A stretch of 64,000 nucleotides of DNA, taken from Chryseobacterium indoltheticum (GTDB taxonomy: Bacteria; Bacteroidota; Bacteroidia; Flavobacteriales; Weeksellaceae). Below, piece by piece: positions 21,610 to 46,013 of this stretch. The notes beneath the pieces are model-generated. The model worked only from the letters and a program-made list of their open reading frames with translations. It ran no database searches and was not told the DNA's origin. The stretch covers positions 2,108,001 through 2,172,000 of the forward strand of contig NZ_CP033929.1 in the NCBI RefSeq assembly GCF_003815915.1, written 5' to 3'. A program made the translations under genes and the position numbers. How positions within the stretch are numbered: position 1 is the stretch's first letter; the number at the start of each line of letters is the position of its first letter.

Positions 21610-21683
21610 GGCTTCGTAGTTCAACTGGATAGAATATCGGATTTCGGCTCCGAGGGTTGGGGGTTCGAATCCCTTCGAAGTCA
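21610..21683 (+). tRNA. tRNA-Arg (anticodon TCG)
   Basis: A complete cloverleaf is readable. Acceptor GGCTTCG pairs with CGAAGTC (one G-T), the D stem GTTC pairs with GAAT, and anticodon stem TCGGA/TCCGA closes the loop TTTCGGC. The T arm is GGGGG-TTCGAAT-CCCTT. The anticodon TCG reads CGA and related arginine codons. The discriminator base is A and CCA is not encoded. A terminator hairpin follows at 21694. Confidence 0.95.
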
Positions 21684-21812: not shown

Positions 21813-21974
21813 TTACATCGAATCATCAGGACATTTGAAATCATTGCTGCAAGTTGCACAAATGACAACACCATTGCAATAATACATGCAAAATTCTGGT
21901 TCTGGTAATGGCTTAATTCCGCCTCCTGAAATACCTTTTAATTGATCTTTGCTTAGTTTTTTTAAGTTTTTCAT
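21813..21974 (-). CDS. Solitary bacteriocin-like precursor peptide
   Basis: 53 residues: leader MKNLKKLSKDQLKGISGGG followed by a short core with five cysteines (CMYYC, VVICATC, FKC). The leader is clearly the same family as the eleven peptides at 34-40 kb and has the double-glycine C39 cleavage site. It lacks the 34-nt upstream element seen there and has no transporter beside it, so it would depend on the exporter 14 kb away or be a relic. The bidirectional terminator at 21769 follows directly. Confidence 0.8.
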   Translation of the reverse strand: MKNLKKLSKDQLKGISGGGIKPLPEPEFCMYYCNGVVICATCSNDFKCPDDSM

Positions 21975-31913: not shown

Positions 31914-32240
31914 ATGATTCGACCTGATTATCAAAGGATCTATAAAGACCTTTTAAAAATGAAATTTCCTGATAAGGAAAAAGATAGCGTAATAAAAGCT
32001 TTATTAGAGAAAGAAAATTTTTCTCAGTTGGATGTTATTAAACTTGAAAGTATTTTATTTGGAAATACACAAAATGATAAACTGCTAAAAAACGGGAGTC
32101 ATCGTTCTTATGATAAATCAACAATTTTTAAGATTCTGGAGTATCAAAAGAAAAACAATCTTAGCAATATAGAACTGGCAAAACATTATGGACTCAGCAG
32201 AAATACCGTTGCCAAATGGAAAAAGTATTTCTTAGTCTGA
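31914..32240 (+). CDS. Second small HTH protein
   Basis: 108 residues. The C-terminal half is a clear helix-turn-helix (TIFKILEYQKKNNLSNIELAK followed by HYGLSRNTVAKWKKYF). Its layout mirrors the 31411 gene product, although the N-terminal halves differ. It is 271 nt upstream of the VKOR-thioredoxin gene and is a candidate regulator of the bacteriocin-like locus. No transposase catalytic domain or inverted repeats are seen nearby. Confidence 0.6.
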   Translation: MIRPDYQRIYKDLLKMKFPDKEKDSVIKALLEKENFSQLDVIKLESILFGNTQNDKLLKNGSHRSYDKSTIFKILEYQKKNNLSNIELAKHYGLSRNTVAKWKKYFLV

Positions 32241-32511: not shown

Positions 32512-34020
32512 ATGAATTTCGACAAACTAATAGATCATTTTAGACTCGACAAACAAGAATTTTATTTCCAGTTCAACTCTCATCCCAATTATCCTTCAGC
32601 TTTAGCGTTTAGCGACACACTCAATTTTTTGGGTTTAAAAAATGACGCTTATGAGCTGGATAAAGAATATTGGGACGAATTACCTAGTGAATTCATGGCC
32701 TTGGTCGATAATTCTTTTTCTCTAGTAAAAAAGAAAGACAGTGAGTTTACTATTTATTCTGATAAGGTAAAGAATATAAGTAAGGAAGAACTTTATAAAA
32801 ACTCAGGTGATTTTGTGCTTCTTTTTGAAAAAACGGAGAATGTAAAGACGACAACATTTTTCGATTTTAAACCGTTTATTTATGTGATTTTCGGGATCAT
32901 TCTTCTTTATTCGTTTTTGCAGTTTACCTGGTACGAAAGCATTTTTAATCTATTGTCTTTACTCGGAATTTACATTTCTTTAGAACTTTTTAATCAAAAA
33001 TTCGGGCAAGAATCTGTGGTAGTTAACAATATTTGCGGTGGCGCTTCAAACAGTAATACCCAAAGTGCATGTGCAACGATTTTTTCTTCAGACAAGACCA
33101 ATATTTTAGGATTGAAGCTTTCTGATTTTAGCTTAATCTATTTCTTGGGAATAACTTTTATCGGGCTATTGTTTCCGAGTGCTCAGTTTGCTTTAAGAAT
33201 TATTTCGTTAATTTCCGTTTTGGTTATTTTATATTCTCTGTATGTACAGGCTTTCGTAGAAAAATCATTGTGCAGAGTTTGTTTATTCATTATTTTTATT
33301 CTGCTTTCACAGATTGTAATCAGCAGCTTCTATTTTAGTCTAGAAGTTTACATACCAATTGTCTTTATTGGTATTATTGCATTTATTTCGTTGTTTTTTA
33401 CAATTGCTTTCCTAAATAATTTGATGAATCAAAAAGAAGAGCTCAAAAAATCGAATGCAAAAAATCTTAGATTCAAAAGAAATTATGATTTGTTCAAAAG
33501 AGAGCTTTTAAGTAATGAGAAAATTGATTTTTCAGATAAGAACACTTTTTTCTTAGGTAATAAGGATGCAAAACTTCACATTTCTGTGGTTTCCAATCCA
33601 TATTGTGGTTTTTGTAAAAATGCGCATAAGATTCTTGAAGATTTATTAGCTAAATATCCAGATGAAATTTCTGCACAGATTAGATTTAATTATTCGGGTG
33701 AAAGTGCCGGTGAAAAATATACCCAGCTTATTTCAGACTTTTTGAGCATTTATCTAAACAAATCACAACACGAGTTTTTAAATACTGTTGATATCTGGTT
33801 TGAAAATAGAAATGAGGATGAAATTAAGAAAAAATCGGGAACCAATCAACCGCAAAATCTTACCAATATTATTCAGATGACATCAGAAAATAGTTCTGCC
33901 GGACTTACTTTTACACCAGTTTTTATTCTTAACGGTTATCAGTTTCCGGATAAGTATGATCGCGAAGACATTCATTATTTTATTAATGAATTGATCGAAG
34001 ATGAAGATTTTTCTGCTTAA
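32512..34020 (+). CDS. VKOR-thioredoxin fusion protein with C39-like N-terminus
   Basis: 502 residues. The first about 110 resemble a degenerate C39-type domain lacking catalytic residues. A helical VKOR domain (about 118-300) follows, with Cys175 and Cys187 in its loop and the active CxxC pair Cys254/Cys257 (SLCRVCLF). The C-terminal thioredoxin/DsbA-like domain has the redox site YCGFC (Cys365/Cys368). Such fusions reoxidise their thiol oxidase with quinone and so make disulfides in the periplasm. The neighbouring peptides carry 4 or 6 cysteines and are the likely substrates. A decayed copy of its 3' end is at 34809-34966. Confidence 0.88.
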   Translation: MNFDKLIDHFRLDKQEFYFQFNSHPNYPSALAFSDTLNFLGLKNDAYELDKEYWDELPSEFMALVDNSFSLVKKKDSEFTIYSDKVKNISKEELYKNSGDFVLLFEKTENVKTTTFFDFKPFIYVIFGIILLYSFLQFTWYESIFNLLSLLGIYISLELFNQKFGQESVVVNNICGGASNSNTQSACATIFSSDKTNILGLKLSDFSLIYFLGITFIGLLFPSAQFALRIISLISVLVILYSLYVQAFVEKSLCRVCLFIIFILLSQIVISSFYFSLEVYIPIVFIGIIAFISLFFTIAFLNNLMNQKEELKKSNAKNLRFKRNYDLFKRELLSNEKIDFSDKNTFFLGNKDAKLHISVVSNPYCGFCKNAHKILEDLLAKYPDEISAQIRFNYSGESAGEKYTQLISDFLSIYLNKSQHEFLNTVDIWFENRNEDEIKKKSGTNQPQNLTNIIQMTSENSSAGLTFTPVFILNGYQFPDKYDREDIHYFINELIEDEDFSA

Positions 34021-34065
34021 ATTATTTCCGTTTAATTAAAATTGATTAATTTTAAATGAATTAAA

Positions 34066-34099
34066 AGCGAGGTCCGAAAAGCTTAAAAAGAGTAGGAAA
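34066..34099 (+). promoter_or_regulatory. 34-nt leader element, copy 1
   Basis: AGCGAGGTCCGAAAAGCT followed by the AGAGTAGGAAA half. It ends 18 nt before peptide 1. A near-match to the -7 box (TAATTTTA, 34047-34054) lies 11 nt upstream, so the element would sit at the 5' end of the transcript. Confidence 0.8.
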
Positions 34100-34117
34100 T
34101 TACCAAATTCAATTTTT

Positions 34118-34261
34118 ATGAAAAATCTAAAAAAAATCAACCGACAGGAAATGAAAACCATTCAAGGTGGTATTAATTGCCAAGGCGGGCAAATTTGCCT
34201 GATCAACGGAAAATGGAAATGCATGCCATACGATGGATGCGGTGGCGGAAACCAGCCATAA
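34118..34261 (+). CDS. Bacteriocin-like precursor peptide 1
   Basis: 47 residues. Leader MKNLKKINRQEMKTIQGG ends in the double glycine cut by C39 proteases. The 29-residue core has four cysteines (NC, QIC, WKC, DGC) and a glycine-rich end. First of three peptides in a row after leader element 1. It sits 97 nt after the VKOR-thioredoxin gene. Function as a toxin, signal or other secreted peptide is not known. Confidence 0.85.
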   Translation: MKNLKKINRQEMKTIQGGINCQGGQICLINGKWKCMPYDGCGGGNQP

Positions 34262-34294
34262 TTTAATCATCAAATCAAACTAAATTACAGTATT

Positions 34295-34441
34295 ATGAAA
34301 AATTTAAAAAAAGTATCAAGAAATCAGATGAAAGACATTAGCGGAGGGGCTTCTGGTTGCTCTCAAGCATGTTGTCCTCCTCCGGGAATAAAAAGATGTC
34401 CTAATATTATTTGTATTATAGCATGTCCAGTAGAATCTTAA
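34295..34441 (+). CDS. Bacteriocin-like precursor peptide 2
   Basis: 48 residues. Leader MKNLKKVSRNQMKDISGG; core with six cysteines and a proline-rich centre (ACCPPPGIKRCP) followed by NIICIIACP. It has no leader element of its own and lies 33 nt after peptide 1, so it is probably on the same transcript. It is a paralogue of peptide 3, sharing the CCPPPG core. Confidence 0.85.
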   Translation: MKNLKKVSRNQMKDISGGASGCSQACCPPPGIKRCPNIICIIACPVES

Positions 34442-34453
34442 AAAATTAATGTT

Positions 34454-34615
34454 ATAAAAAATTTAAAAAAAATTTCAAGAAATCAGATGAAAAATATTAC
34501 CGGAAGCGGTGGAATAATCGTAAAACAATGCGTAAATATCTGTTGTCCGCCTCCTGGACAAATTAAATGTCCAAAATTGATTTGCCCGGCTGTAGTTTGT
34601 CCACAGTATGTTTAG
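34454..34615 (+). pseudogene. Bacteriocin-like peptide 3 with ATA in place of ATG
   Basis: The frame is intact for 53 residues (xKNLKKISRNQMKNITGSGG, then a core with six cysteines containing CCPPPGQIKCP), but its first codon is ATA. The next in-frame ATG (34487) would delete most of the leader. Either ATA is used inefficiently, or the gene has been silenced by one base change while its core stays intact. It is a paralogue of peptide 2, 12 nt downstream of it. Confidence 0.7.
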
Positions 34616-34665
34616 AATTTATTAGATAATAATTATTATCTACAATACATAATATTTAATTAAAG

Positions 34666-34698
34666 AAAGAGGCTGTCTTATCTGCCTCTTTTATTTTG
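34666..34698 (+). terminator. Terminator after peptide 3
   Basis: AAAGAGGC-N10-GCCTCTTT followed by a T-rich tail. It ends the first peptide transcript. Confidence 0.8.
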
Positions 34699-34808
34699 TT
34701 ATTATCTAAACTTTTGTTTTAAAATTTTACTTCTTCTTAAGTTAATTATATTTTTTCTTAGGAAAAGATACGTATTTTATAGTTGGCAATTGATTAAGAT
34801 AAGATGAG

Positions 34809-34966
34809 AAAAAATCCGTTTATTATTCAGATTACCTAAAGCAATTTCGCAGGGTTTATTTTACTAAGATACTTAACGGTTCTATGTTGCAGATAAATTT
34901 ATTTGTGAAGTTATTCATTGTTTTATTAGTGAATTGATTACAGATGGAAATATTGTTATCATATAA
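34809..34966 (+). pseudogene. Decayed copy of the VKOR-thioredoxin 3' end
   Basis: The sequence aligns with the last about 160 nt of the intact gene at 32512-34020. TTATTATTCAGATTAC matches ATATTATTCAGATGAC, TTAACGGTT is shared, and the final frame reads VIHCFISELITDGN against DIHYFINELIEDED, with small deletions between. Promoter, leader element and peptide follow, in the same order as after the intact gene. Confidence 0.75.
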
Positions 34967-34998
34967 TTGTCGGTTTTAACTTTTTTTAACAAAAACGA

Positions 34999-35030
34999 TT
35001 GTGAAGATTAAAATATTTCATTTATATTTG
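34999..35030 (+). promoter_or_regulatory. Promoter of the peptide 4-7 unit
   Basis: TTG at 34999-35001 and TATATTTG at 35023-35030 match the Bacteroidota -33/-7 pattern with a 21-nt spacer. Transcription would start about 35037, immediately before leader element 2. Confidence 0.7.
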
Positions 35031-35040
35031 AAATAAGTAA

Positions 35041-35074
35041 AGCGGTATCCGAAAAGCTTCAACAGAGTAGGAAA
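35041..35074 (+). promoter_or_regulatory. 34-nt leader element, copy 2
   Basis: AGCGGTATCCGAAAAGCT followed by the AGAGTAGGAAA half. It ends 17 nt before peptide 4. Its position right after the promoter shows it is transcribed as the extreme 5' leader. Confidence 0.85.
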
Positions 35075-35091
35075 AAACTAAAAAATATTTT

Positions 35092-35289
35092 ATGAAAAAT
35101 TTAAAAAAGTTATCAAGAGAAAATCTTAAAAATTTAAAAGGAGGAGGAGGAATAGGATCATCATGGGATCTATGTACTGACATTCGTGATGTGAGTAATT
35201 GCTACTCTTCTTATGATCATTGTAGGCTTTATTCAGGCAGTGGTTGTGCAACTACACAATTTTGTGGACAAACATTATATTGTGTATGA
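35092..35289 (+). CDS. Bacteriocin-like precursor peptide 4
   Basis: 65 residues. Leader MKNLKKLSRENLKNLKGGGG; core with six cysteines in the order C-DIRDVSNC-YDHC-SGSGC-FC-LYC. Peptides 6 and 7 share this cysteine frame with substitutions concentrated in the loops, so the three are recent duplicates. Confidence 0.9.
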   Translation: MKNLKKLSRENLKNLKGGGGIGSSWDLCTDIRDVSNCYSSYDHCRLYSGSGCATTQFCGQTLYCV

Positions 35290-35434
35290 TAGTTATTTGA
35301 AAAATAAAAATACTAGACTATCTAACAGGTAATTATATATTATAATCACAGACAAATATTCAGAAAAATTAAATATTTCTTTAATTAAATATAATATTTG
35401 AATTTGAAAAATCCCTAAATTGGGATAAAACTAA

Positions 35435-35468
35435 AGCGGCATCCGAAAAGCTTCAATAGAGTAGGAAA
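35435..35468 (+). promoter_or_regulatory. 34-nt leader element, copy 3
   Basis: AGCGGCATCCGAAAAGCT plus the AGAGTAGGAAA half, 16 nt before peptide 5. It is preceded by a small hairpin ATCCC-TAAATT-GGGAT that recurs in degenerate form before copies 4 and 5. No -7 box is visible here. Confidence 0.8.
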
Positions 35469-35484
35469 ACCAAATCTTATATTT

Positions 35485-35664
35485 ATGAAAAACTTAATAA
35501 AACTTTCAAGAGAAAATCTTAAAAGCGTACAGGGAGGAATTACTCTTGAATGTGCACAAGGGCAAGCAGCATCTGTAAAGTGCTACAATACAAATGTTGA
35601 ATGCGTAAATGATCCTAATTCAGGCGGTTTTTGCATTCGTTATTGCAATAAGTCTTGCTACTAA
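35485..35664 (+). CDS. Bacteriocin-like precursor peptide 5
   Basis: 59 residues. Leader MKNLIKLSRENLKSVQGG; the core has six cysteines (ECAQG, VKC, VEC, GGFC, YC, SCY) but is unrelated in loop sequence to peptides 4, 6 and 7. It therefore shows a different core inserted behind the same leader and 5' element. Confidence 0.85.
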   Translation: MKNLIKLSRENLKSVQGGITLECAQGQAASVKCYNTNVECVNDPNSGGFCIRYCNKSCY

Positions 35665-35755
35665 TATCTAAAAGTTTTTAATTATTAAAAAATATAAATT
35701 TTATTTAATATAATATTTGTATTTATTAAAAATCTCTAAATTGGGATAAAAATAT

Positions 35756-35789
35756 AGCGGTATCCGAAAAGCTTCAATAGAGTAGGAAA
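35756..35789 (+). promoter_or_regulatory. 34-nt leader element, copy 4
   Basis: Identical to copy 5 over the full 34 nt and its flank to the ATG. It ends 16 nt before peptide 6. Confidence 0.8.
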
Positions 35790-35805
35790 AAACTAAAAAT
35801 ATGTT

Positions 35806-35994
35806 ATGAAAAATTTAAAAAAATTATCAAGAGAAAATCTTAAAAATTTAAAAGGAGGAGGAGGTCCGTATAAACCATGTGATGACATTAGCGATGTAAG
35901 TACTTGTTATCCATCTTATGATCATTGTAGGCTTTATTCAGGTAGTAGCTGTACACCTAGAGGATTTTGTGGTCAAACATTATATTGCATATGA
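35806..35994 (+). CDS. Bacteriocin-like precursor peptide 6
   Basis: 62 residues. The leader is identical to that of peptide 4 through KGGGG. The core keeps the six-cysteine frame (PCDDISDVSTCYPSYDHC onward) with changed loops such as TPRG. Product of tandem duplication. Confidence 0.9.
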   Translation: MKNLKKLSRENLKNLKGGGGPYKPCDDISDVSTCYPSYDHCRLYSGSSCTPRGFCGQTLYCI

Positions 35995-36031
35995 TAGTTA
36001 TTTAAAAAATTCCTAAATTGGGATAAAATAT

Positions 36032-36065
36032 AGCGGTATCCGAAAAGCTTCAATAGAGTAGGAAA
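36032..36065 (+). promoter_or_regulatory. 34-nt leader element, copy 5
   Basis: Same sequence as copy 4. It ends 16 nt before peptide 7 and is preceded by the hairpin variant ATTCC-TAAATT-GGGAT. Confidence 0.8.
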
Positions 36066-36081
36066 AAACTAAAAATATGTT

Positions 36082-36273
36082 ATGAAAAATCTAAAAAAGT
36101 TATCAAGAGAAAATCTTAAAAATTTAAAAGGAGGAGGAAAACCACATTTATGTTTAGATATACGTGATGTAAGCAGTTGTTTTTCTTCTTATGATGAATG
36201 TAGACTTCATTCTGGTAGCGGTTGTTTAAATACTATAGAATTTTGTGAGCAAACATTATATTGCATGTGGTAA
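36082..36273 (+). CDS. Bacteriocin-like precursor peptide 7
   Basis: 63 residues. Leader MKNLKKLSRENLKNLKGGG; core LCLDIRDVSSCFSSYDEC onward with six cysteines in the peptide 4 frame and a C-terminal Trp. Last peptide before the exporter gene, separated from it by a terminator-like hairpin. Confidence 0.9.
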   Translation: MKNLKKLSRENLKNLKGGGKPHLCLDIRDVSSCFSSYDECRLHSGSGCLNTIEFCEQTLYCMW

Positions 36274-36298
36274 TTACATTTGAAAAATATCTTAAATT

Positions 36299-36325
36299 GA
36301 GGCTGTATTTTATACAGTCTTTTTA
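36299..36325 (+). terminator. Terminator-like hairpin before the C39 exporter
   Basis: GGCTGTAT-TTT-ATACAGTC with a following T-run ends about 10 nt before the exporter start codon. It can cut exporter mRNA relative to peptide mRNA, or end the peptide unit altogether. Confidence 0.7.
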
Positions 36326-36335
36326 ATATAAAGCA

Positions 36336-38531
36336 TTGAAAAAAAAATTCCCAAATTACATACAGCCCGACTCTAAAGATTGTGGCCCTACTTGTCTAAG
36401 AATTGTCAGCAAACATTACGGAAAAAGTATTTCCCTGCAACAGATTCGTAACCTTTCAGAAACTACCCGGGAAGGAAGCAGCTTACTTGGTTTAAGTGAT
36501 GCTGCCGAAGATTTGGGCTTCCGTTCTTTAGGAGTGCAGGTCGATTTCAATACATTAGCTGAAGAAGTACCTTTCCCATGCATTGTACACTGGAACAAAA
36601 ATCACTTTGTAGTCGTTTATAAAATAGATAAAAATAATTTGGTATATATTTCAGATCCGAGCTACGGACTGATTACTTATTCCAGAGAAGAATTTATCAA
36701 AAGATGGATTGGTGAAAATGCCAACGAAAACACGGAAGAGGGAATTGCTTTGATTCTGGAAACTACACCAGCATTTTTCCAAACCGAATTTGACGATCAG
36801 GAAAGTAAAGCCAGTTTTTCTTTTTTATCTAAATATCTGTTAAAATATAAATCGCTTATTGTTCAGTTGGCGGTAGGATTATTAGCGGGAAGTTTACTTT
36901 CTCTTATTCTTCCTTTCCTTACTCAGAGTATTGTGGATGTTGGAATTCAGAATCAGGATCTGAATTTTATCTATCTTGTTCTTCTCGCTCAAGTGATGCT
37001 TTTTCTAGGCAGAATGGGAATTGAGGTTATCCGAAGCTGGATTTTACTTCACCTTTCAACAAGAATCAACATTTCAATTATTTCAGATTTCTTTATTAAA
37101 TTAATGAAACTTCCCATCAGTTTCTTTGATACAAGAATGACCGGAGATATTATGCAGAGAATTAATGACCATCACAGAATTGAACAGCTTCTGACCAACT
37201 CTTCTCTGAATACATTGTTCTCATTAGTCAACCTGATTATTTTCAGTATTGTATTGCTGTTTTATGATTACAGATTATTTGTTGTCTATTTAGTTGGAGC
37301 CACCTTATATATTGCATGGATTACTTTTTTTCTCGGAAAAAGAAAAGAATTAGATTATAAAAGATTTTCACAGGTTTCACAGGAACAGAGTAAAGTCATT
37401 GAACTGATCAACGGAATGCAGGAGATAAAAATGCATAACGCTGAAAAACAAAAACGTTGGGATTGGGAATTTTTACAGGTAAAACTTTTTAAATTAAAAA
37501 TAAAATCGCTGTCATTAGAGCAATGGCAATCGGTTGGAGGAAATTTCATCAACCAAATGAAAGATATTTTGGTAAGTTTTCTTTCTGCTAAATTGGTTTT
37601 GGAAGGGAATCTTACTTTAGGGATGATGCTTTCTGTACAATACATTATCGGACAGTTGAATAGTCCCCTATTGCAATTGATTGATTTTGTAAAACAAACT
37701 CAGGATGCCAAAATTTCTTTAGAAAGACTACGCGAAATTCATGATAAAGAAGATGAGGAAAGCAAAGACGATCAATATGCTACAGAAATTCCGGATAAAG
37801 ATATAGAAATCAATAATATGTCTTTCAGATACATCGGTGCGGATGTTCCTGTTTTTGAAAATTTAAACTTAAATATTCCACACCAAAAAACAACGGCAAT
37901 CGTTGGAGCCAGCGGAAGTGGGAAAACGACATTGTTGAAATTATTAATGAAGTTTTATGAACCTAACGAAGGTGAAATCAAAATAGGGAATACCCAAATG
38001 AAAAACATCTCACCAAGATTCTGGAGAGATCAGTGTGGTGTGGTGATGCAGGAAGGATATGTTTTTAATGACACAATTGCTAATAATATTGCAGTCGGAG
38101 AAGATTATGTAGACAAATCAAAACTAAGAAAAGCTGTAGAAATTGCCAATATTAAAGAGTTTATCGAAGATCTACCTTTAAGCTACAACACAAAAATAGG
38201 AAATGAAGGAGTCGGTGTAAGTGGTGGTCAAAAGCAAAGACTTTTCATTGCAAGAGCGGTTTACAAATCTCCGGAATATATTTTCTTTGATGAAGCAACA
38301 AGTGCTTTAGATGCCAATAATGAAAAGGTAATTATGGAAAATCTAGAACAGTTCTTTAAAGGAAAAACAGCGATTGTCATTGCTCACAGATTATCAACCG
38401 TAAAACATGCCGATAAAATTATTGTTCTCGATAAAGGCAAAGTTGTAGAAGAAGGAAACCATGTGGAATTGGTAGCTTTAAAAGGAGAATATTACAGACT
38501 CGTTAAAAATCAACTGGAATTAGGTAATTAA
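36336..38531 (+). CDS. C39 peptidase-containing ABC exporter (PCAT)
   Basis: 731 residues from a TTG start (no in-frame ATG lies upstream). The C39 protease domain has oxyanion Gln10, catalytic Cys16 (SKDCGPTC), His90 and Asp107. A six-helix membrane domain spans about 165-450. The ATPase has Walker A GASGSGKTT near 523, signature GVSGGQKQR near 627, Walker B IFFDEATSALD and the H-loop AHRLS. Such transporters cut leaders after a double glycine and export the core. All neighbouring peptides have matching leaders. The HlyD adaptor is at 39763. Confidence 0.95.
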   Translation: MKKKFPNYIQPDSKDCGPTCLRIVSKHYGKSISLQQIRNLSETTREGSSLLGLSDAAEDLGFRSLGVQVDFNTLAEEVPFPCIVHWNKNHFVVVYKIDKNNLVYISDPSYGLITYSREEFIKRWIGENANENTEEGIALILETTPAFFQTEFDDQESKASFSFLSKYLLKYKSLIVQLAVGLLAGSLLSLILPFLTQSIVDVGIQNQDLNFIYLVLLAQVMLFLGRMGIEVIRSWILLHLSTRINISIISDFFIKLMKLPISFFDTRMTGDIMQRINDHHRIEQLLTNSSLNTLFSLVNLIIFSIVLLFYDYRLFVVYLVGATLYIAWITFFLGKRKELDYKRFSQVSQEQSKVIELINGMQEIKMHNAEKQKRWDWEFLQVKLFKLKIKSLSLEQWQSVGGNFINQMKDILVSFLSAKLVLEGNLTLGMMLSVQYIIGQLNSPLLQLIDFVKQTQDAKISLERLREIHDKEDEESKDDQYATEIPDKDIEINNMSFRYIGADVPVFENLNLNIPHQKTTAIVGASGSGKTTLLKLLMKFYEPNEGEIKIGNTQMKNISPRFWRDQCGVVMQEGYVFNDTIANNIAVGEDYVDKSKLRKAVEIANIKEFIEDLPLSYNTKIGNEGVGVSGGQKQRLFIARAVYKSPEYIFFDEATSALDANNEKVIMENLEQFFKGKTAIVIAHRLSTVKHADKIIVLDKGKVVEEGNHVELVALKGEYYRLVKNQLELGN

Positions 38532-38534
38532 ATA

Positions 38535-38569
38535 TAAAAAATAATTCATCTATGTCGGAATTATTTTTT
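38535..38569 (+). terminator. Terminator after the C39 exporter
   Basis: AATAATTC-N10-GAATTATT followed by T-run. A TATATTTA near-match to the -7 box begins at its end and may serve leader element 6. Confidence 0.75.
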
Positions 38570-38588
38570 ATATTTAAGTCTTAATAAA

Positions 38589-38622
38589 AGCGTTATCCGA
38601 AAAGCTATAAGAGAGTAGGAAA
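38589..38622 (+). promoter_or_regulatory. 34-nt leader element, copy 6
   Basis: AGCGTTATCCGAAAAGCT then ATAAGAGAGTAGGAAA. It ends 21 nt before peptide 8 and lies 12 nt after the -7-like box TATATTTA (38569-38576). Confidence 0.8.
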
Positions 38623-38643
38623 AATCAAAAATATTTTACCAAT

Positions 38644-38856
38644 ATGAAAAATTTTAAAAAAATCTCAAGAAAAGAATTGAAAGACATCAAAGGAGGAGGA
38701 CGTGCTGATGATTGCTTTGCTCACTTTGTTCCTGGTGATCAGATACCAGAAGATGGGGGGTATAATTGTCCTTGCAAATTAGTGTGGTGCCCGCAAAGAG
38801 GATCATGCATACATCAAAATATGTATGACCCACAAGATTGTCAGACTGGTCTCTAA
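38644..38856 (+). CDS. Bacteriocin-like precursor peptide 8
   Basis: 70 residues. Leader MKNFKKISRKELKDIKGGG; core with six cysteines (DDC, NCPC, VWC, GSC, QDC), acidic and unrelated to the other cores. First peptide after the exporter gene. Confidence 0.88.
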   Translation: MKNFKKISRKELKDIKGGGRADDCFAHFVPGDQIPEDGGYNCPCKLVWCPQRGSCIHQNMYDPQDCQTGL

Positions 38857-38875
38857 TGAGATGGAATTTATTAAA

Positions 38876-38909
38876 AGCGTTACCCGAAAAGCTATAAAAG
38901 AGTAGGGAA
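38876..38909 (+). promoter_or_regulatory. 34-nt leader element, copy 7
   Basis: AGCGTTACCCGAAAAGCT then ATAAAAGAGTAGGGAA. Here TCC has become CCC and the matching downstream GGA has become GGG, a compensatory pair. It ends 21 nt before peptide 9. Confidence 0.8.
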
Positions 38910-38930
38910 ATCAAAATCAAACTATTTATC

Positions 38931-39134
38931 ATGAAAAATTTAAAAAAACTGAAAAGAAGCGATTTAGGTAAAATTTTAGGTGCTGGTCACGGTGAGCCAA
39001 TTCCAGTTGATGATTGTGGCGGTCAGCCAAATGGAATTCCAAGTAGCGGATCGTGTCCTGCAGGTTACATTTACTGTTCATTGCCTAGCTGCTGTTTTAA
39101 ATCTAATAGACCTTACGCTTGTATTGATTATTAA
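38931..39134 (+). CDS. Bacteriocin-like precursor peptide 9
   Basis: 67 residues. Leader MKNLKKLKRSDLGKILGAG, with Gly-Ala in place of Gly-Gly at the expected cleavage point, a variant known for C39 substrates. The core has six cysteines (DDC, GSC, IYC, SCC, YAC) with the motif CPAGYIYCSLPSCCFK shared with peptide 11. Confidence 0.85.
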   Translation: MKNLKKLKRSDLGKILGAGHGEPIPVDDCGGQPNGIPSSGSCPAGYIYCSLPSCCFKSNRPYACIDY

Positions 39135-39231
39135 TTCCAAACAAATATTATAAGTTAAATCCTCTTAATGATAGGAGGACTTCTTAGAGACTTACTAAAA
39201 TACTTAAAACAAGGATTAATTAAACTTTTAA

Positions 39232-39265
39232 AAAATAATCTTAAAACCTGTAAGAGAGTAAGAAA
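39232..39265 (+). promoter_or_regulatory. Degenerate leader element, copy 8
   Basis: Only the 3' half (TGTAAGAGAGTAAGAAAA) is clear. The 5' half and the GGA are lost. It still ends 21 nt before a peptide start, as do copies 6 and 7. Confidence 0.5.
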
Positions 39266-39286: not shown

Positions 39287-39457
39287 ATGAAAAATTTAAA
39301 AAAACTTTCAAAAAAGAATTTAAAAGAGATCCATGGTGGAGGTTATGGGGAAAATGATTGGGGTGTCTGTCGTGTTAATGGAGCATGGGTACCCACAAAG
39401 TGTTTAGATCGTTGTCCAAATGGCACAGATCCAATATGTTTAGCTCCAGAGGTATAA
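39287..39457 (+). CDS. Bacteriocin-like precursor peptide 10
   Basis: 56 residues. Leader MKNLKKLSKKNLKEIHGGG; core with four cysteines (GVC, TKC, DRC, PIC). It is preceded only by the degenerate element. Peptide 11 starts 16 nt after its stop. Confidence 0.85.
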   Translation: MKNLKKLSKKNLKEIHGGGYGENDWGVCRVNGAWVPTKCLDRCPNGTDPICLAPEV

Positions 39458-39677: not shown

Positions 39678-39729
39678 TGATAGAATTTTTGAATGCAATT
39701 ATAAATTATTATATACATCAATATGATTA

Positions 39730-39758
39730 CTAAATCCTCAATTGAGGATTTAGTTTTT
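39730..39758 (+). terminator. Terminator directly before the HlyD gene
   Basis: CTAAATCCTC-AATT-GAGGATTTAG, a perfect 10-bp stem followed by five T, ends 5 nt before the HlyD ATG at 39763. This repeats the arrangement in front of the C39 exporter. Confidence 0.85.
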
Positions 39759-41648: not shown

Positions 41649-44600
41649 ATGTTAGATAAAATCATAAAATTTAGCATCAAAAACAAGATAGTCGTTGGGA
41701 TAATGACTTTATTGTGGATAATTTGGGGAGTTTGGAGCGCGACCAGATTACCCGTCGATGCTGTACCCGATATTACCAATAATCAGGTACAAATTATCAC
41801 GGTTTGTCCTACGCTTGCTGGTCAGGAAGTAGAACAGCTGGTTACTTTTCCCATTGAGCAAAGCATCGCCAATATTCCGGATATTGAGGAAACGAGAAGT
41901 ATTTCCCGATTTGGATTATCGGTAATTACCGTTGTTTTTAAAGACGATGTTAATATATATTTTGCACGTCAGCTTATCAGCGAAAAACTAAAAGAAGCTG
42001 CAGAGGAAATCCCAAAAGGAATCGGAACTCCTGAATTAGCGCCCGTAAGTACAGGTTTGGGCGAGGTTTATCAATATATTCTGCATCCGAAAAAAGGAAG
42101 CGAAAACAAATACACTTCCCAGGAACTGCGAACAATGCAGGATTGGATTGTGAGAAGACAATTAAATGGTACACCGGGAATAGCGGAAGTCAATAGTTTT
42201 GGTGGTGAGTTGAAACAATACGAAGTTGCTATTGACCCTAACCGACTGAAAGCAATGGGTGTAAGTGTGACTGATATTTTCACGTCATTAGAGAAAAACA
42301 ATCAGAATACTGGAGGAGCTTATATCGATAAAAAACCAAATGCTTACTTCATCCGTGGCATTGGCGTTGTCGCTTCTCTGGAAGATATAAAAAACATTGC
42401 CGTAAAGAACAACACAGCTAGTGTTCCGATTTTTATAAAAGATGTTGCCGACGTAAGATTAGGAAGTGCGGTACGTTATGGAGCAATGACGTTCAATGGT
42501 AAAGTAGATGCTGTAGGCGGTATTGTAATGATGCTGAAAGGAGCCAACAGTAATGAAGTGGTGAATTTGGTGAAAGAAAAAATCCCGACAATTCAAAAAT
42601 CTTTACCCAAAGATGTTGTTATAGAACCGTTTTTAGACCGAACAGATTTGGTGGGAAGAGCCATCAATACCGTTGAGAAAAACTTAATTGAAGGCGCATT
42701 GATTGTAATTTTTGTTCTGGTATTATTTCTTGGGAATTTCAGAGCAGGATTAATCGTTGCATCCGCAATTCCATTAGCATTGCTTTTTGCGTTGGGAATG
42801 ATGAATGTTTTTGGCGTAAGTGCAAATTTGATGAGCCTTGGAGCAATCGACTTTGGACTGATTGTAGACGGTGCAGTTATTATTGTGGAAGCGACGCTTC
42901 ATCATTTAGGACTCAGAAAATCGACTCAGAAACTTACGCAGACTGAAATGGATGAAGAAGTTTTTCTTTCCGCTTCAAAAATCAGAAACAGCGCAGCATT
43001 TGGTGAAATCATTATTCTTATCGTTTATATTCCTATCCTGACTTTGGTTGGAGTAGAAGGTAAAATGTTCACACCAATGGCAAAAACAGTAGGTTTTGCA
43101 ATCTTAGGAGCTTTGATTTTATCACTGACTTACATTCCGATGATGAGTGCCTTATTTTTATCTAAAAAGCCTTCCACAAAAGAAAATTTTTCAGATAAAA
43201 TGATGCGCAGGCTGCAGAATATTTACCAGCCGCTATTACAGAAAGCACTGCGTTTAAAATACATTTTAGTTTCGGCTACCGTTGCATTATTTGCAGTTAG
43301 TATTTTTGTATTCAGCAGAATGGGAGGTGAGTTCATTCCGCAATTGCAGGAAGGAGATTTTGCATTTCACTGTATTTTACCGCAAGGAAGTTCGCTTACC
43401 CAAAGTGTAGAAACGTCGATGCAGGCATCAAGAATCATTAAGCAATTTGATGAAGTGAAAATGGTTGTAGGAAAAACAGGTTCAGCCGAAGTTCCTACCG
43501 ACCCGATGCCACCGGAAGCAACGGATATGATTATTGTTTTAAAACCACAAAAAGAATGGAAAACAAAAAAATCCTACGATGAATTAGCTGATGAAATCTC
43601 TGAAAAACTGGAAAATATCCCCGGTGTTTTCTTTGAGAAAAATCAACCGATACAGATGCGTTTCAATGAACTGATGACTGGAATTCGCCAGGATGTTGCC
43701 GTGAAAATTTTTGGTGAAAACCTGGATTCTCTTGCGATTTATGCAGAAAAGGTGAATGATGTGATTCAAACTATTGAAGGGGTAACTAAACCTCAAATTG
43801 AACGGGTTAGCGGACTTCCGCAAATCAACGTAGAATACGACAGAACAAGAATGGCGAACTACGGATTGAATATTGAAGATGTGAATAATACGCTCAGTAC
43901 GGCTTTTGCGGGTAAAAGCGCAGGTTTGGTTTTTGAGAACGAAAGACGTTTTGATTTGGTCGTACGATTAGACAGCATTCACAGAACCAATATTGATGAC
44001 GTAAATAACCTGATGATATCTACAAGTTCAGGAAATCAGATTCCACTTTCACAGGTTGCCAATATCAGCTACAAACTCGGTCCTGCACAGATAAGCCGTG
44101 AAGAAGGAAAACGAAGAATTGTGATCGGTTTTAATGTAAAAGACCGTGATGTGGAAAGTGTGGTGAATGATATTCAGAAAAAATTAGACAATAAGATAAA
44201 ACTTCCTTCGGGTTATTATTTCACGTATGGTGGGCAATTCGAGAATTTGCAGGCAGCAAGCAAACGTTTGATGATTGCTGTTCCGGTTTCTCTTTTGTTA
44301 ATTTTTATGCTGCTATATTTTACATTTAAATCTTTCAAGCAAGCCGCATTAATTTTTACAGCCATTCCTATGAGTGCAATTGGTGGTGTTTTCGCATTAA
44401 TTATTCGGGATATGCCATTCAGTATTAGTGCAGGGATTGGTTTTATCGCTTTGTTTGGGGTTGCGGTTTTAAACGGAATTGTTTTGATTGGAACATTCAA
44501 TCAATTGGAAAAAGATGGTGAAACCGATATTCTGAAACGTGTTTTTGAAGGAACTAAAACAAGGCTTCGTCCGGTTTTGATGACTGCAGCGGTCGCATCG

Positions 44601-46013
44601 TTAGGATTTCTTCCGATGGCAATTTCCACAGGAGCGGGTGCAGAAGTTCAAAAGCCATTGGCAACCGTTGTTATTGGTGGATTGATAACAGCAACTTTCC
44701 TTACATTATTCGTTTTACCAATGCTTTATATTATTTTCAGCACAAAATTCAAAATAAAAAATATCAAAATGAAACCTTTAACGACGGTGATTATTTTAGG
44801 TTTTTTATTGTTTGGACAAACAATGGCTGCTCAAACTACAAAAACGCTATCGGTAGAAGAGGCAACAGAAATAGCGCTGAATAATAACCATTCAATAAAA
44901 TCAAAAGACTTAGACGTTAAGGTTTCTGAAAGCTTAAAACCAACGGCCAATGAACTTCCGAAAATGGAGTTTAATGCACAATTGGGGCAATACAACAGTC
45001 CGAAATTTGACCAGTCGTTTTCTATTTCGCAAACGATTCCGTTTCCTACATTATTTAAAGCGAGAAAGGAAATCATTGCGCAGGAAATAAAAGGAAAGCA
45101 AATTAATCGTGAAATTACAGTTAATGAGTTGGCAAAACAGGTAAGAACCTATTTTTATCAAATTGAATATCTGCATTATAATCAAAATAAACTGTTGAAA
45201 TTGGATAGTCTTTATCAGGATTTTATCAGAATTGCAACCGTAAGATTTAATGCAGGTGACATCAAGAAAATAGAAATAAGCACTGCAGAAACCCAGAAAG
45301 GAGAAATCAATTTATTATTAAATCAGAATAAGATTTATCTTAATAATGCTTACAAAAATCTGAAAATGCTTCTGAATACAAATGACGATATTCAGATTCC
45401 TCTTAATAAAAGCTATGAACCGTTGAAAGCGGAATATGTTCTTGACAGCACAGCTATTGCCAATCATCCGACTGTAAAAGCTTTTTATCAGGAAATGGAA
45501 ATCGCCGATAAGAACAAAAACGTTGAGAAGTCACAAGGCTTGCCGGAATTCACTTTAGGCTATACCAATCAGTCGATTATTGGTTTTCATACATTGAATG
45601 GTCAGGAGAAATTTTATAATGCAGGAAACCGTTTCAGTGTTGCGAGTGTCGGAGTTGCGATTCCATTGACTTTTGGAGCGACCAAAGCACGAATTCAGTC
45701 TTTAGAATATCAAAAACAGATGGCAGAATCTAATGCCAAACAGCAACAAAAACAATTGACCGCTCAGTTGGAAAATGCATTAAGCCAATATCAACAGGAT
45801 ATTCAGCAATACCAATATTACATTGCGCAGGCTTTGCCAAATGCAGAAAAAATCGTCAAAGCAGGGCAACTCGGTTACAAAACCGGAGAAATCTCTTATG
45901 TCGAATATTTATTTGCTTTGCAGACTGCGACTAATATTCAGCTGAAATATTTGGAATCCATACAACAGGTAAACCAGTCTGTGATCACCATTAACTCTTT
46001 AATCAACAAATAA
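41649..46013 (+). CDS. CzcA/CusA-family RND efflux pump fused to TolC
   Basis: 1454 residues. Residues 1-1035 form a heavy-metal RND pump: LPVDAVPDITNNQVQI near the start, the proton-relay helix DFGLIVDGAVIIVEA, and the second-half transmembrane block. From Met1041 a complete TolC-type outer-membrane protein follows, including its own signal-peptide-like stretch (MKPLTTVIILGFLLFGQTMA). Pump and channel are thus one polypeptide, a layout seen in other Bacteroidota. It expels metal cations such as Cu, Zn, Co or Cd, and the ion is not readable. The adaptor gene follows 1 nt later. Confidence 0.92.
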   Translation: MLDKIIKFSIKNKIVVGIMTLLWIIWGVWSATRLPVDAVPDITNNQVQIITVCPTLAGQEVEQLVTFPIEQSIANIPDIEETRSISRFGLSVITVVFKDDVNIYFARQLISEKLKEAAEEIPKGIGTPELAPVSTGLGEVYQYILHPKKGSENKYTSQELRTMQDWIVRRQLNGTPGIAEVNSFGGELKQYEVAIDPNRLKAMGVSVTDIFTSLEKNNQNTGGAYIDKKPNAYFIRGIGVVASLEDIKNIAVKNNTASVPIFIKDVADVRLGSAVRYGAMTFNGKVDAVGGIVMMLKGANSNEVVNLVKEKIPTIQKSLPKDVVIEPFLDRTDLVGRAINTVEKNLIEGALIVIFVLVLFLGNFRAGLIVASAIPLALLFALGMMNVFGVSANLMSLGAIDFGLIVDGAVIIVEATLHHLGLRKSTQKLTQTEMDEEVFLSASKIRNSAAFGEIIILIVYIPILTLVGVEGKMFTPMAKTVGFAILGALILSLTYIPMMSALFLSKKPSTKENFSDKMMRRLQNIYQPLLQKALRLKYILVSATVALFAVSIFVFSRMGGEFIPQLQEGDFAFHCILPQGSSLTQSVETSMQASRIIKQFDEVKMVVGKTGSAEVPTDPMPPEATDMIIVLKPQKEWKTKKSYDELADEISEKLENIPGVFFEKNQPIQMRFNELMTGIRQDVAVKIFGENLDSLAIYAEKVNDVIQTIEGVTKPQIERVSGLPQINVEYDRTRMANYGLNIEDVNNTLSTAFAGKSAGLVFENERRFDLVVRLDSIHRTNIDDVNNLMISTSSGNQIPLSQVANISYKLGPAQISREEGKRRIVIGFNVKDRDVESVVNDIQKKLDNKIKLPSGYYFTYGGQFENLQAASKRLMIAVPVSLLLIFMLLYFTFKSFKQAALIFTAIPMSAIGGVFALIIRDMPFSISAGIGFIALFGVAVLNGIVLIGTFNQLEKDGETDILKRVFEGTKTRLRPVLMTAAVASLGFLPMAISTGAGAEVQKPLATVVIGGLITATFLTLFVLPMLYIIFSTKFKIKNIKMKPLTTVIILGFLLFGQTMAAQTTKTLSVEEATEIALNNNHSIKSKDLDVKVSESLKPTANELPKMEFNAQLGQYNSPKFDQSFSISQTIPFPTLFKARKEIIAQEIKGKQINREITVNELAKQVRTYFYQIEYLHYNQNKLLKLDSLYQDFIRIATVRFNAGDIKKIEISTAETQKGEINLLLNQNKIYLNNAYKNLKMLLNTNDDIQIPLNKSYEPLKAEYVLDSTAIANHPTVKAFYQEMEIADKNKNVEKSQGLPEFTLGYTNQSIIGFHTLNGQEKFYNAGNRFSVASVGVAIPLTFGATKARIQSLEYQKQMAESNAKQQQKQLTAQLENALSQYQQDIQQYQYYIAQALPNAEKIVKAGQLGYKTGEISYVEYLFALQTATNIQLKYLESIQQVNQSVITINSLINK

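What the first reader, a model, noticed from the sequence alone, without database searches (positions are those of the whole stretch)
34066..39265. Seven ungapped 34-nt leader elements with a possible pseudoknot before peptide genes
Copies at 34066, 35041, 35435, 35756, 36032, 38589 and 38876 share AGCG-N3-YCCGAAAAGCT-N5-AGAGTAGGRAA and end 16-21 nt before an ATG. An eighth, decayed copy is at 39232. AGC can pair with GCT, and the YCC in that loop with the downstream GGR, giving an H-type pseudoknot. In copy 7 TCC/GGA is replaced by CCC/GGG, a compensatory change. Copy 2 starts about 4 nt after the inferred transcription start, so the element is a 5' RNA leader. It matches no riboswitch class I know. 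A DNA operator for the adjacent HTH proteins is the alternative.
Basis: partly seen in the sequence, partly recalled or inferred. Interest (0 to 1): 0.87.

Follow-up and report, generated by a model that had tools for sequence, protein, structure and literature searches.

The report
Tiny knotted RNA before peptide genes
Seven short RNA leaders in front of bacteriocin-like peptide genes belong to an already catalogued but unexplained RNA family that folds into a knot, sits about 21 bases before the start codon, and also appears between genes in phage operons, which points to a role in starting translation.

Summary
In detail: seven exact copies, none in 100 shuffles. The element is not new: all seven are Rfam RF02914, DUF805b RNA, 43.2-47.9 bits. 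A DNA operator is therefore unlikely.

Beyond the catalogue entry: (1) the nearly invariant loops, GAAAA and AGAGUA, match a 6x5 sarcin-ricin module that would stack between the stems (inference). (2) The start codon lies a median 21 nt downstream, in bacteria and in viral contigs. (3) In five congeneric genomes 36 of 75 elements precede leader_Chryseo bacteriocin-like ORFs. (4) In viral contigs 45 of 84 elements begin within 20 nt of the preceding gene's stop codon; two named Flavobacterium phages show the same.

Best reading: a cis-acting pseudoknot controlling translation initiation of the adjacent cistron in a phylum that lacks Shine-Dalgarno usage. Its partner (ribosome, RNA-binding protein or small molecule) is unknown.

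The parts
34064..34098 (+). DUF805b RNA copy 1; before the peptide ORF at 34118
   Evidence: RF02914, 43.5 bits; exact pattern
35039..35073 (+). DUF805b RNA copy 2; before the peptide ORF at 35092
   Evidence: RF02914, 47.9 bits
35433..35467 (+). DUF805b RNA copy 3; before the peptide ORF at 35485
   Evidence: RF02914, 47.1 bits
35754..35788 (+). DUF805b RNA copy 4; before the peptide ORF at 35806
   Evidence: RF02914, 45.1 bits
36030..36064 (+). DUF805b RNA copy 5; 35 nt after the preceding stop codon, before the ORF at 36082
   Evidence: RF02914, 45.1 bits; ORF ends
38587..38621 (+). DUF805b RNA copy 6; before the peptide ORF at 38644
   Evidence: RF02914, 43.2 bits
38874..38908 (+). DUF805b RNA copy 7, with the compensated CCC/GGG pseudoknot helix; 17 nt after the preceding stop codon, before the ORF at 38931
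   Evidence: RF02914, 44.6 bits; ORF ends
39232..39265 (+). decayed eighth copy before the ORF at 39287: stem lost, TCT/AGA still complementary
   Evidence: by eye; no Rfam hit
34118..34261 (+). bacteriocin-like peptide, leader_Chryseo
   Evidence: NF047798, 39.6 bits, cut-off 23.5
34295..34441 (+). bacteriocin-like peptide without an element of its own
   Evidence: NF047798, 35.9 bits
35092..35289 (+). bacteriocin-like peptide, leader_Chryseo
   Evidence: NF047798, 33.3 bits
35485..35664 (+). bacteriocin-like peptide, leader_Chryseo
   Evidence: NF047798, 31 bits
35806..35994 (+). bacteriocin-like peptide, leader_Chryseo
   Evidence: NF047798, 33.4 bits
36082..36273 (+). bacteriocin-like peptide, leader_Chryseo
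   Evidence: NF047798, 33.4 bits
36336..38531 (+). C39-peptidase ABC transporter, likely exporter and leader protease for the peptides (role inferred)
   Evidence: Pfam Peptidase_C39, ABC_membrane, ABC_tran
38644..38856 (+). bacteriocin-like peptide, leader_Chryseo
   Evidence: NF047798, 37.2 bits
38931..39134 (+). bacteriocin-like peptide, leader_Chryseo
   Evidence: NF047798, 25.2 bits
39287..39457 (+). bacteriocin-like peptide behind the decayed copy
   Evidence: NF047798, 34.1 bits
39474..39677 (+). bacteriocin-like peptide without an element
   Evidence: NF047798, 24 bits
39763..41058 (+). HlyD-type adaptor of the exporter
   Evidence: Pfam HlyD_3
32512..34020 (+). VKOR plus thioredoxin-fold membrane protein, possible disulfide partner of the cysteine-rich peptides
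   Evidence: Pfam VKOR and Thioredoxin_4; role inferred

Best explanation
The copies are DUF805b RNAs (RF02914): about 35 nt, read as RNA, folding into a compact H-type pseudoknot. Shown by covariation: P1 of 3-4 bp, a 4-nt loop, and P2 = xCC/GGy. Inferred from sequence: the nearly invariant GAAAA and AGAGUA form a 6x5 sarcin-ricin module stacked between P1 and P2. Shown: P2 ends a nearly fixed distance (median 21 nt) before the AUG, just upstream of the A-rich -14 to -10 zone, and the element often sits between genes of one direction. Inferred: it acts in cis on translation initiation of the next cistron, as a docking platform just behind the initiating 30S subunit, bound either by the ribosome itself or by an RNA-binding protein. 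In this window it would set production of seven exported bacteriocin-like peptides one cistron at a time.
For: Family. P1 and P2 covariation with failing register controls: and, free of any covariance-model selection. Sarcin-ricin match: numbering from PMC8450098 passages. Spacer: 208 of 238 elements within 14-30 nt, 78 of 98 in viral contigs with the same median of 21. Position behind the previous gene: 51 of 206 within 60 nt of an upstream stop; 45 of 84 viral elements within 20 nt, against 102 of 1680 random points and 87 of 1022 points 57 nt before other same-strand ORF starts. Ordinary start signals (A at -3, -6, -11 to -13) retained. Members of the phylum lack Shine-Dalgarno sequences (PMC6847099 passages; PMC9976891 abstract start in the listing).
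Against: No expression, probing or binding data. The direction of control is unknown. Distribution is patchy (96 of 395 phylum genomes), and 114 of the 150 listed leader_Chryseo ORFs have no element within 5-45 nt, so it is not a general requirement for translation. Nested folding energies are no better than shuffles (z -0.54 to 0.88), and copies 2, 4 and 5 show a competing CGG/CCG hairpin in the nested model. The downstream genes share no obvious function.
Confidence: 0.6

Rival explanations
1. A small-molecule riboswitch: the pseudoknot is an aptamer for a signal shared by many exported or competition genes and by phages, and ligand binding changes access to the start region.
For: Compact pseudoknot with nearly invariant loops; up to 22 copies per genome before diverse genes, as a signalling-molecule riboswitch could show.
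Against: No terminator between element and ATG in the window; a variable A/U-rich spacer of about 21 nt; phage DNA-metabolism genes and host exported proteins share no metabolite theme. The conserved loop bases are accounted for by a sarcin-ricin fold, leaving no obvious binding pocket (inference).
Confidence: 0.2
2. A binding site for a trans-acting RNA-binding regulator that controls translation or decay of a Bacteroidota regulon; phages exploit it.
For: One conserved module before many unrelated genes. A sarcin-ricin surface is a plausible protein docking site (general knowledge).
Against: No candidate protein was sought or identified. It overlaps with the best explanation, which leaves the binder open.
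Confidence: 0.35
3. A 5'-end stabiliser of mRNA.
For: Some copies lie close behind promoter-like -7 boxes: over 207 elements, 72 boxes with at least 5 of 6 matches at 5-19 nt upstream against about 33 in shuffles.
Against: Boxes are also enriched 30-49 nt upstream (78 against 48). Copies behind a preceding stop codon cannot be 5' ends without processing or a promoter inside the gene before. Loop conservation and the fixed distance to AUG are not needed for a stabiliser.
Confidence: 0.12
4. A DNA operator for the neighbouring HTH proteins.
For: An HTH-like small ORF at 31914-32240, matches below the curated Pfam cut-offs.
Against: Compensatory changes preserve RNA pairing with all four Watson-Crick types; 208 of 238 elements have an ORF on the same strand starting 14-30 nt downstream; many lie just behind another gene of the same strand.
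Confidence: 0.02

Closest known systems
Rfam RF02914 DUF805b RNA
   Same: All seven copies score above the gathering cut-off over the full model.
   Different: The consensus line printed by cmscan shows only the P1 stem.
Rfam RF03081 DUF805 RNA
   Same: Same 3' core; one copy at 1122569 of this genome.
   Different: Carries an extra 5' hairpin; the window copies score as DUF805b.
Sarcin-ricin / bulged-G module (23S H95)
   Same: G2-A3-G4-U5-A6 facing G9-A10-A11-A12; a 6x5 loop variant is named in PMC8450098 (passages).
   Different: Here it would join the two stems of a pseudoknot; no structure has been solved that I know of.
Small H-type pseudoknot riboswitches (preQ1-I type, recalled)
   Same: Size and topology.
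   Different: No hit to such a class in the Rfam scans of the window; no Shine-Dalgarno sequestration.

Membership tests
RF02914 DUF805b | CM score at or above 35.6 bits over the full model | tested here: met
   7 of 7 window copies, 43.2-47.9 bits, model 1-35/35
RF02914 DUF805b | P1 stem supported by covariation | tested here: met
   pattern-fetched bacterial elements only: pairs 1-3 Watson-Crick in 98, 105 and 96 of 120, largest of 2000 shuffles 55, 89 and 53; all 253: 222, 236, 221
RF02914 DUF805b | cis position upstream of an ORF | tested here: met
   208 of 238 have an ATG-started ORF at 14-30 nt; 9 have none within 120 nt
RF03081 DUF805 | additional 5' hairpin GUGGAG...CCAC | tested here: not met
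   window copies are reported as DUF805b, the better of the clan; the hairpin model matches L103, L111, L116, L167, L172 and L020
H-type pseudoknot | second helix between the P1 loop and the downstream strand | tested here: met
   outer P2 pair 204 WC + 13 GU of 253, null 78, maximum 102; nonredundant 151 WC + 9 GU of 178, null 57.8, maximum 80; the two inner pairs were fixed by selection
Sarcin-ricin module | core GAGUA facing GAAA flanked by WC pairs | tested here: met
   173 CM-found loci scanned; 85 distinct places had perfect 3-bp P1 and P2, of which 72 exact loops, 5 with one change, 8 with 4-5 mismatches judged wrong registers (173)
Sarcin-ricin module | three-dimensional fold | not testable with these tools
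   no RNA 3D tool
Riboswitch | specific ligand binding | not testable with these tools
   no binding data
Riboswitch | recognisable expression platform | tested here: not met
   none of the 5 terminator-like sites in the window stretch scanned lies between an element and its ATG; variable A/U-rich spacer

The most novel reading that the evidence does not exclude
DUF805b is a bacterial, IRES-like ribosome-docking pseudoknot: in a phylum whose ribosomes do not use Shine-Dalgarno pairing, a prefabricated P1/sarcin-ricin/P2 rod placed about 21 nt before the AUG recruits or re-loads the 30S subunit on individual cistrons, and both phages and host toxin-like peptide operons use it.
Probability: 0.25. 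Interest if true: 0.92.

Novelty: new member of a known kind. Interest (0 to 1): 0.6.

Why it matters
DUF805b is an orphan family: searches for DUF805, DUF805b and RF02914 in the held library found no paper on its function, judged by titles and abstract starts. A resolved architecture, a fixed distance to the start codon, a place between genes in dense phage operons and a concrete target set (bacteriocin-like peptides) turn it into a testable question about how Bacteroidota, which do not use Shine-Dalgarno pairing, choose and tune start codons.

Tried and rejected
New-RNA-class claim: rejected, Rfam RF02914. DNA operator: rejected by compensatory changes. Obligate link to the transcription start: rejected; strict TAnnTTTG boxes are scarce and many copies follow a preceding gene closely. 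Thermodynamic support from nested folding: none. P1 in other registers: rejected. A single downstream function: not found. A blastn look-up of one viral stretch in named phages found nothing; a protein search with another viral ParB-like protein did.

Literature, all in the held open-licence library, which lacks the paper recalled as founding: DUF805b 0 papers; DUF805 8 papers, none about the RNA judging by titles and abstract starts; RF02914 in one paper, listing only; Chryseobacterium bacteriocin search one listing, not read; listings gave nothing on the RNA family (33 and 74 were empty). Passages were seen of PMC8450098, PMC6847099, PMC9976891 and PMC7779021; no paper was read whole.

Own checks at the end: the 253 elements mix pattern-fetched loci with loci fetched by the Rfam model, which itself scores P1; I therefore repeated the test on pattern-fetched loci alone, and the result held. 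The random control (41 of 430) was less strict than the element count; the like-for-like figures are those.

Dropped rows: one search used 238 of 290 elements (at most 1 mismatch, loop of 3-5 nt); one search used 149 of 178 nonredundant downstream proteins (leader_Chryseo, very short and repeated families left out, proteins cut at 400 aa); one search used 63 of 86 viral proteins after redundancy removal; one search listed 150 of 238 leader_Chryseo matches; the five genomes were chosen by me from those with few contigs and many copies; one search tested 84 of 98 viral elements.

Full report
WHAT IS THERE. The eighth, at 39232, is not recognised. The host genome holds 12 hits at 34.5 bits or more, 11 of them over the 35.6-bit cut-off. 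One of the 12, at 1122569, is the longer sister family DUF805 (RF03081), which is the same core plus a 5' hairpin.

DISTRIBUTION. RF02914 matches 232 of 296 genomes of the family at E <= 1e-4, up to 22 copies each, and 96 of 395 genomes across the phylum at E <= 1e-5, in 47 of 170 genera. The 80 titles listed read as Bacteroidota, apart from one Ignavibacteriaceae and one Ruminococcus assembly; several of the 80 are chance matches inside genes, by eye. Fourteen control genomes gave no hit at these thresholds; at lax thresholds all 14 gave hits below the cut-off.

STRUCTURE. I selected 253 distinct elements by CCGAAAA and AGAGTAGG, so that P1 and the outer pair of P2 were free to vary. With a loop of exactly 4 nt, P1 pairs 1-4 are Watson-Crick in 222, 236, 221 and 139 of 253, against shuffle means of 74, 189, 90 and 90; a fifth pair is absent. 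Loops of 3 or 5 nt give no comparable signal (z at most 3.3). The outer P2 pair is Watson-Crick in 204 and wobble in 13 of 253 (mean 78, largest of 2000 shuffles 102), using T-A, G-C, C-G and A-T. The next position outward shows nothing. Part of these loci had been fetched with the Rfam model, which scores P1, so I repeated the test on loci fetched by the loop pattern alone. In 120 bacterial elements P1 pairs 1-3 are Watson-Crick in 98, 105 and 96 (largest of 2000 shuffles 55, 89, 53) and the outer P2 pair in 84 plus 9 wobble (maximum 52). In 122 viral elements they are 104, 105 and 104 (54, 75, 67) and 97 plus 6 (72). With one element per downstream protein family the P2 result is 151 + 9 of 178 (mean 57.8, largest of 10,000 shuffles 80); a register slid by one gives 53 against 44.6. 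The two inner P2 pairs were fixed by selection; under looser matching a few T-A and T-G replacements appear, and L272 shows TCT/AGA. Shuffles ignore relatedness, and R-scape was not available. Nested folding does not find the structure: energies equal shuffles, and copies 2, 4 and 5 show another hairpin.

THE LOOPS. GAAAA and AGAGUA are nearly invariant. Of 173 loci found with the covariance model, 85 distinct places had perfect 3-bp P1 and P2 near the centre; 72 of these have the exact loops, 5 have one change and 8 have 4-5 mismatches, which I judge to be wrong registers. PMC8450098 (passages) numbers the sarcin-ricin motif so that A6-G9 is the upper tHS pair, G4 is the conserved bulge in a triple with a conserved U and A, A3-A11 is the tHH pair, G2-A12 is a tested lower pair, and some motifs carry one more non-Watson-Crick pair in a 6x5 loop. 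CC|GAAAA and AGAGUA|GG fit this letter by letter (U5 and A10 by inference), including strand polarity and the flanking GG/CC. One locus (L095) changes G9 to A, which that paper found isosteric but less stable. In an H-type knot these two loops meet at the junction of the stems, so P1, the module and P2 could form one rod, with the 4-nt loop crossing the deep groove. This is inference; no 3D test was possible.

POSITION. Of 238 elements, 208 have an ORF starting 14-30 nt after the P2 strand, median 21; 9 have none within 120 nt. The nonredundant mean is 21.9, sd 4.0, with A favoured at -3, -6 and -11 to -13, signals described for F. johnsoniae in PMC6847099 (passages). Promoter-like -7 boxes are moderately enriched 5-19 nt upstream and again at 30-49 nt. 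Of 206 elements, 51 lie within 60 nt after a same-strand ORF, and window copies 5 and 7 follow the previous stop by 35 and 17 nt. In the window no terminator-like site lies between an element and its ATG.

PHAGES. Of 126 matches, 98 have P1 of 3 bp or more at a 4-nt loop, and 96 of these also pair the outer P2 position, wobble included. Spacing is again a median of 21 nt, 78 of 98 within 14-30. Of 84 testable elements, 45 begin no more than 20 nt after the stop codon of the preceding ORF, or overlap it; by the same rule this holds for 102 of 1680 random points and 87 of 1022 points 57 nt before other same-strand ORF starts. The 63 nonredundant downstream proteins include ParB-like proteins (9 match phrog_12305), and matches to DNA methyltransferase and nuclease families, which may overlap with these. 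Of 40 viral records 34 match RF02914, 1-3 copies each. In Flavobacterium phages lillamy9-1 and morran9-1 a 52.1-bit copy lies in the 59-nt gap before a ParB-like gene, next to single-strand-binding and primase/helicase genes.

TARGETS. In five congeneric genomes of my choice 36 of 75 elements lie 16-24 nt before a leader_Chryseo ORF (NF047798, 'bacteriocin-like protein'); conversely 36 of the 150 listed such ORFs have the element. Across the phylum the targets are diverse: of 149 scanned proteins, subtilases 4, DUF805 4, DUF6520 4, PixA 2 and many singletons. Among targets of at least 100 aa, 73 of 131 look exported by a crude hydrophobicity rule, against 156 of 554 neighbouring genes (odds ratio 3.2, p 5e-9).

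MECHANISM. The fixed distance to the AUG, the place between genes and the lack of a transcriptional platform point to translation initiation. In Bacteroidia the 16S tail is sequestered and Shine-Dalgarno sequences are not recognised (PMC9976891, abstract start in the listing). I propose a docking platform behind the initiating 30S subunit, bound by the ribosome or by a protein. Shown: family, pseudoknot, spacing, placement. Inferred: sarcin-ricin fold, translation level, binder, direction of effect.

VERDICT. A known orphan family, here with a clear architecture and a target set that I found described in no paper searched; ordinary as a discovery of a motif, interesting as a handle on its function.

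Noticed in passing
window 36299-36321 and 39729-39754: Terminator-like hairpins lie just before the C39 transporter gene and the HlyD gene, as if their expression depends on read-through from the peptide genes.
   Followed up: no
window 35412-35425, 35733-35746, 36010-36023: Copies 3, 4 and 5 share an upstream TCCC/TCTC/TTCC-TAAATT-GGGA segment that could form a small hairpin with wobble changes, 6-7 nt before the element (by eye).
   Followed up: no
window 21921-21974 (-): Another leader_Chryseo peptide start without a listed DUF805b element, near the tRNA at 21610.
   Followed up: no
window 41649-46013: One 1454-aa ORF reads by eye as an RND-type efflux pump fused to an outer-membrane efflux domain (no family search made).
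   Followed up: no
G000:C1:2020023-2020057: A further DUF805b element with a leader_Chryseo peptide lies about 780 nt downstream of a 5S rRNA gene.
   Followed up: partly
members of the downstream-protein set A1: One downstream protein matches bacterial rhodopsin and one a caspase domain, so the targets reach well beyond export.
   Followed up: no
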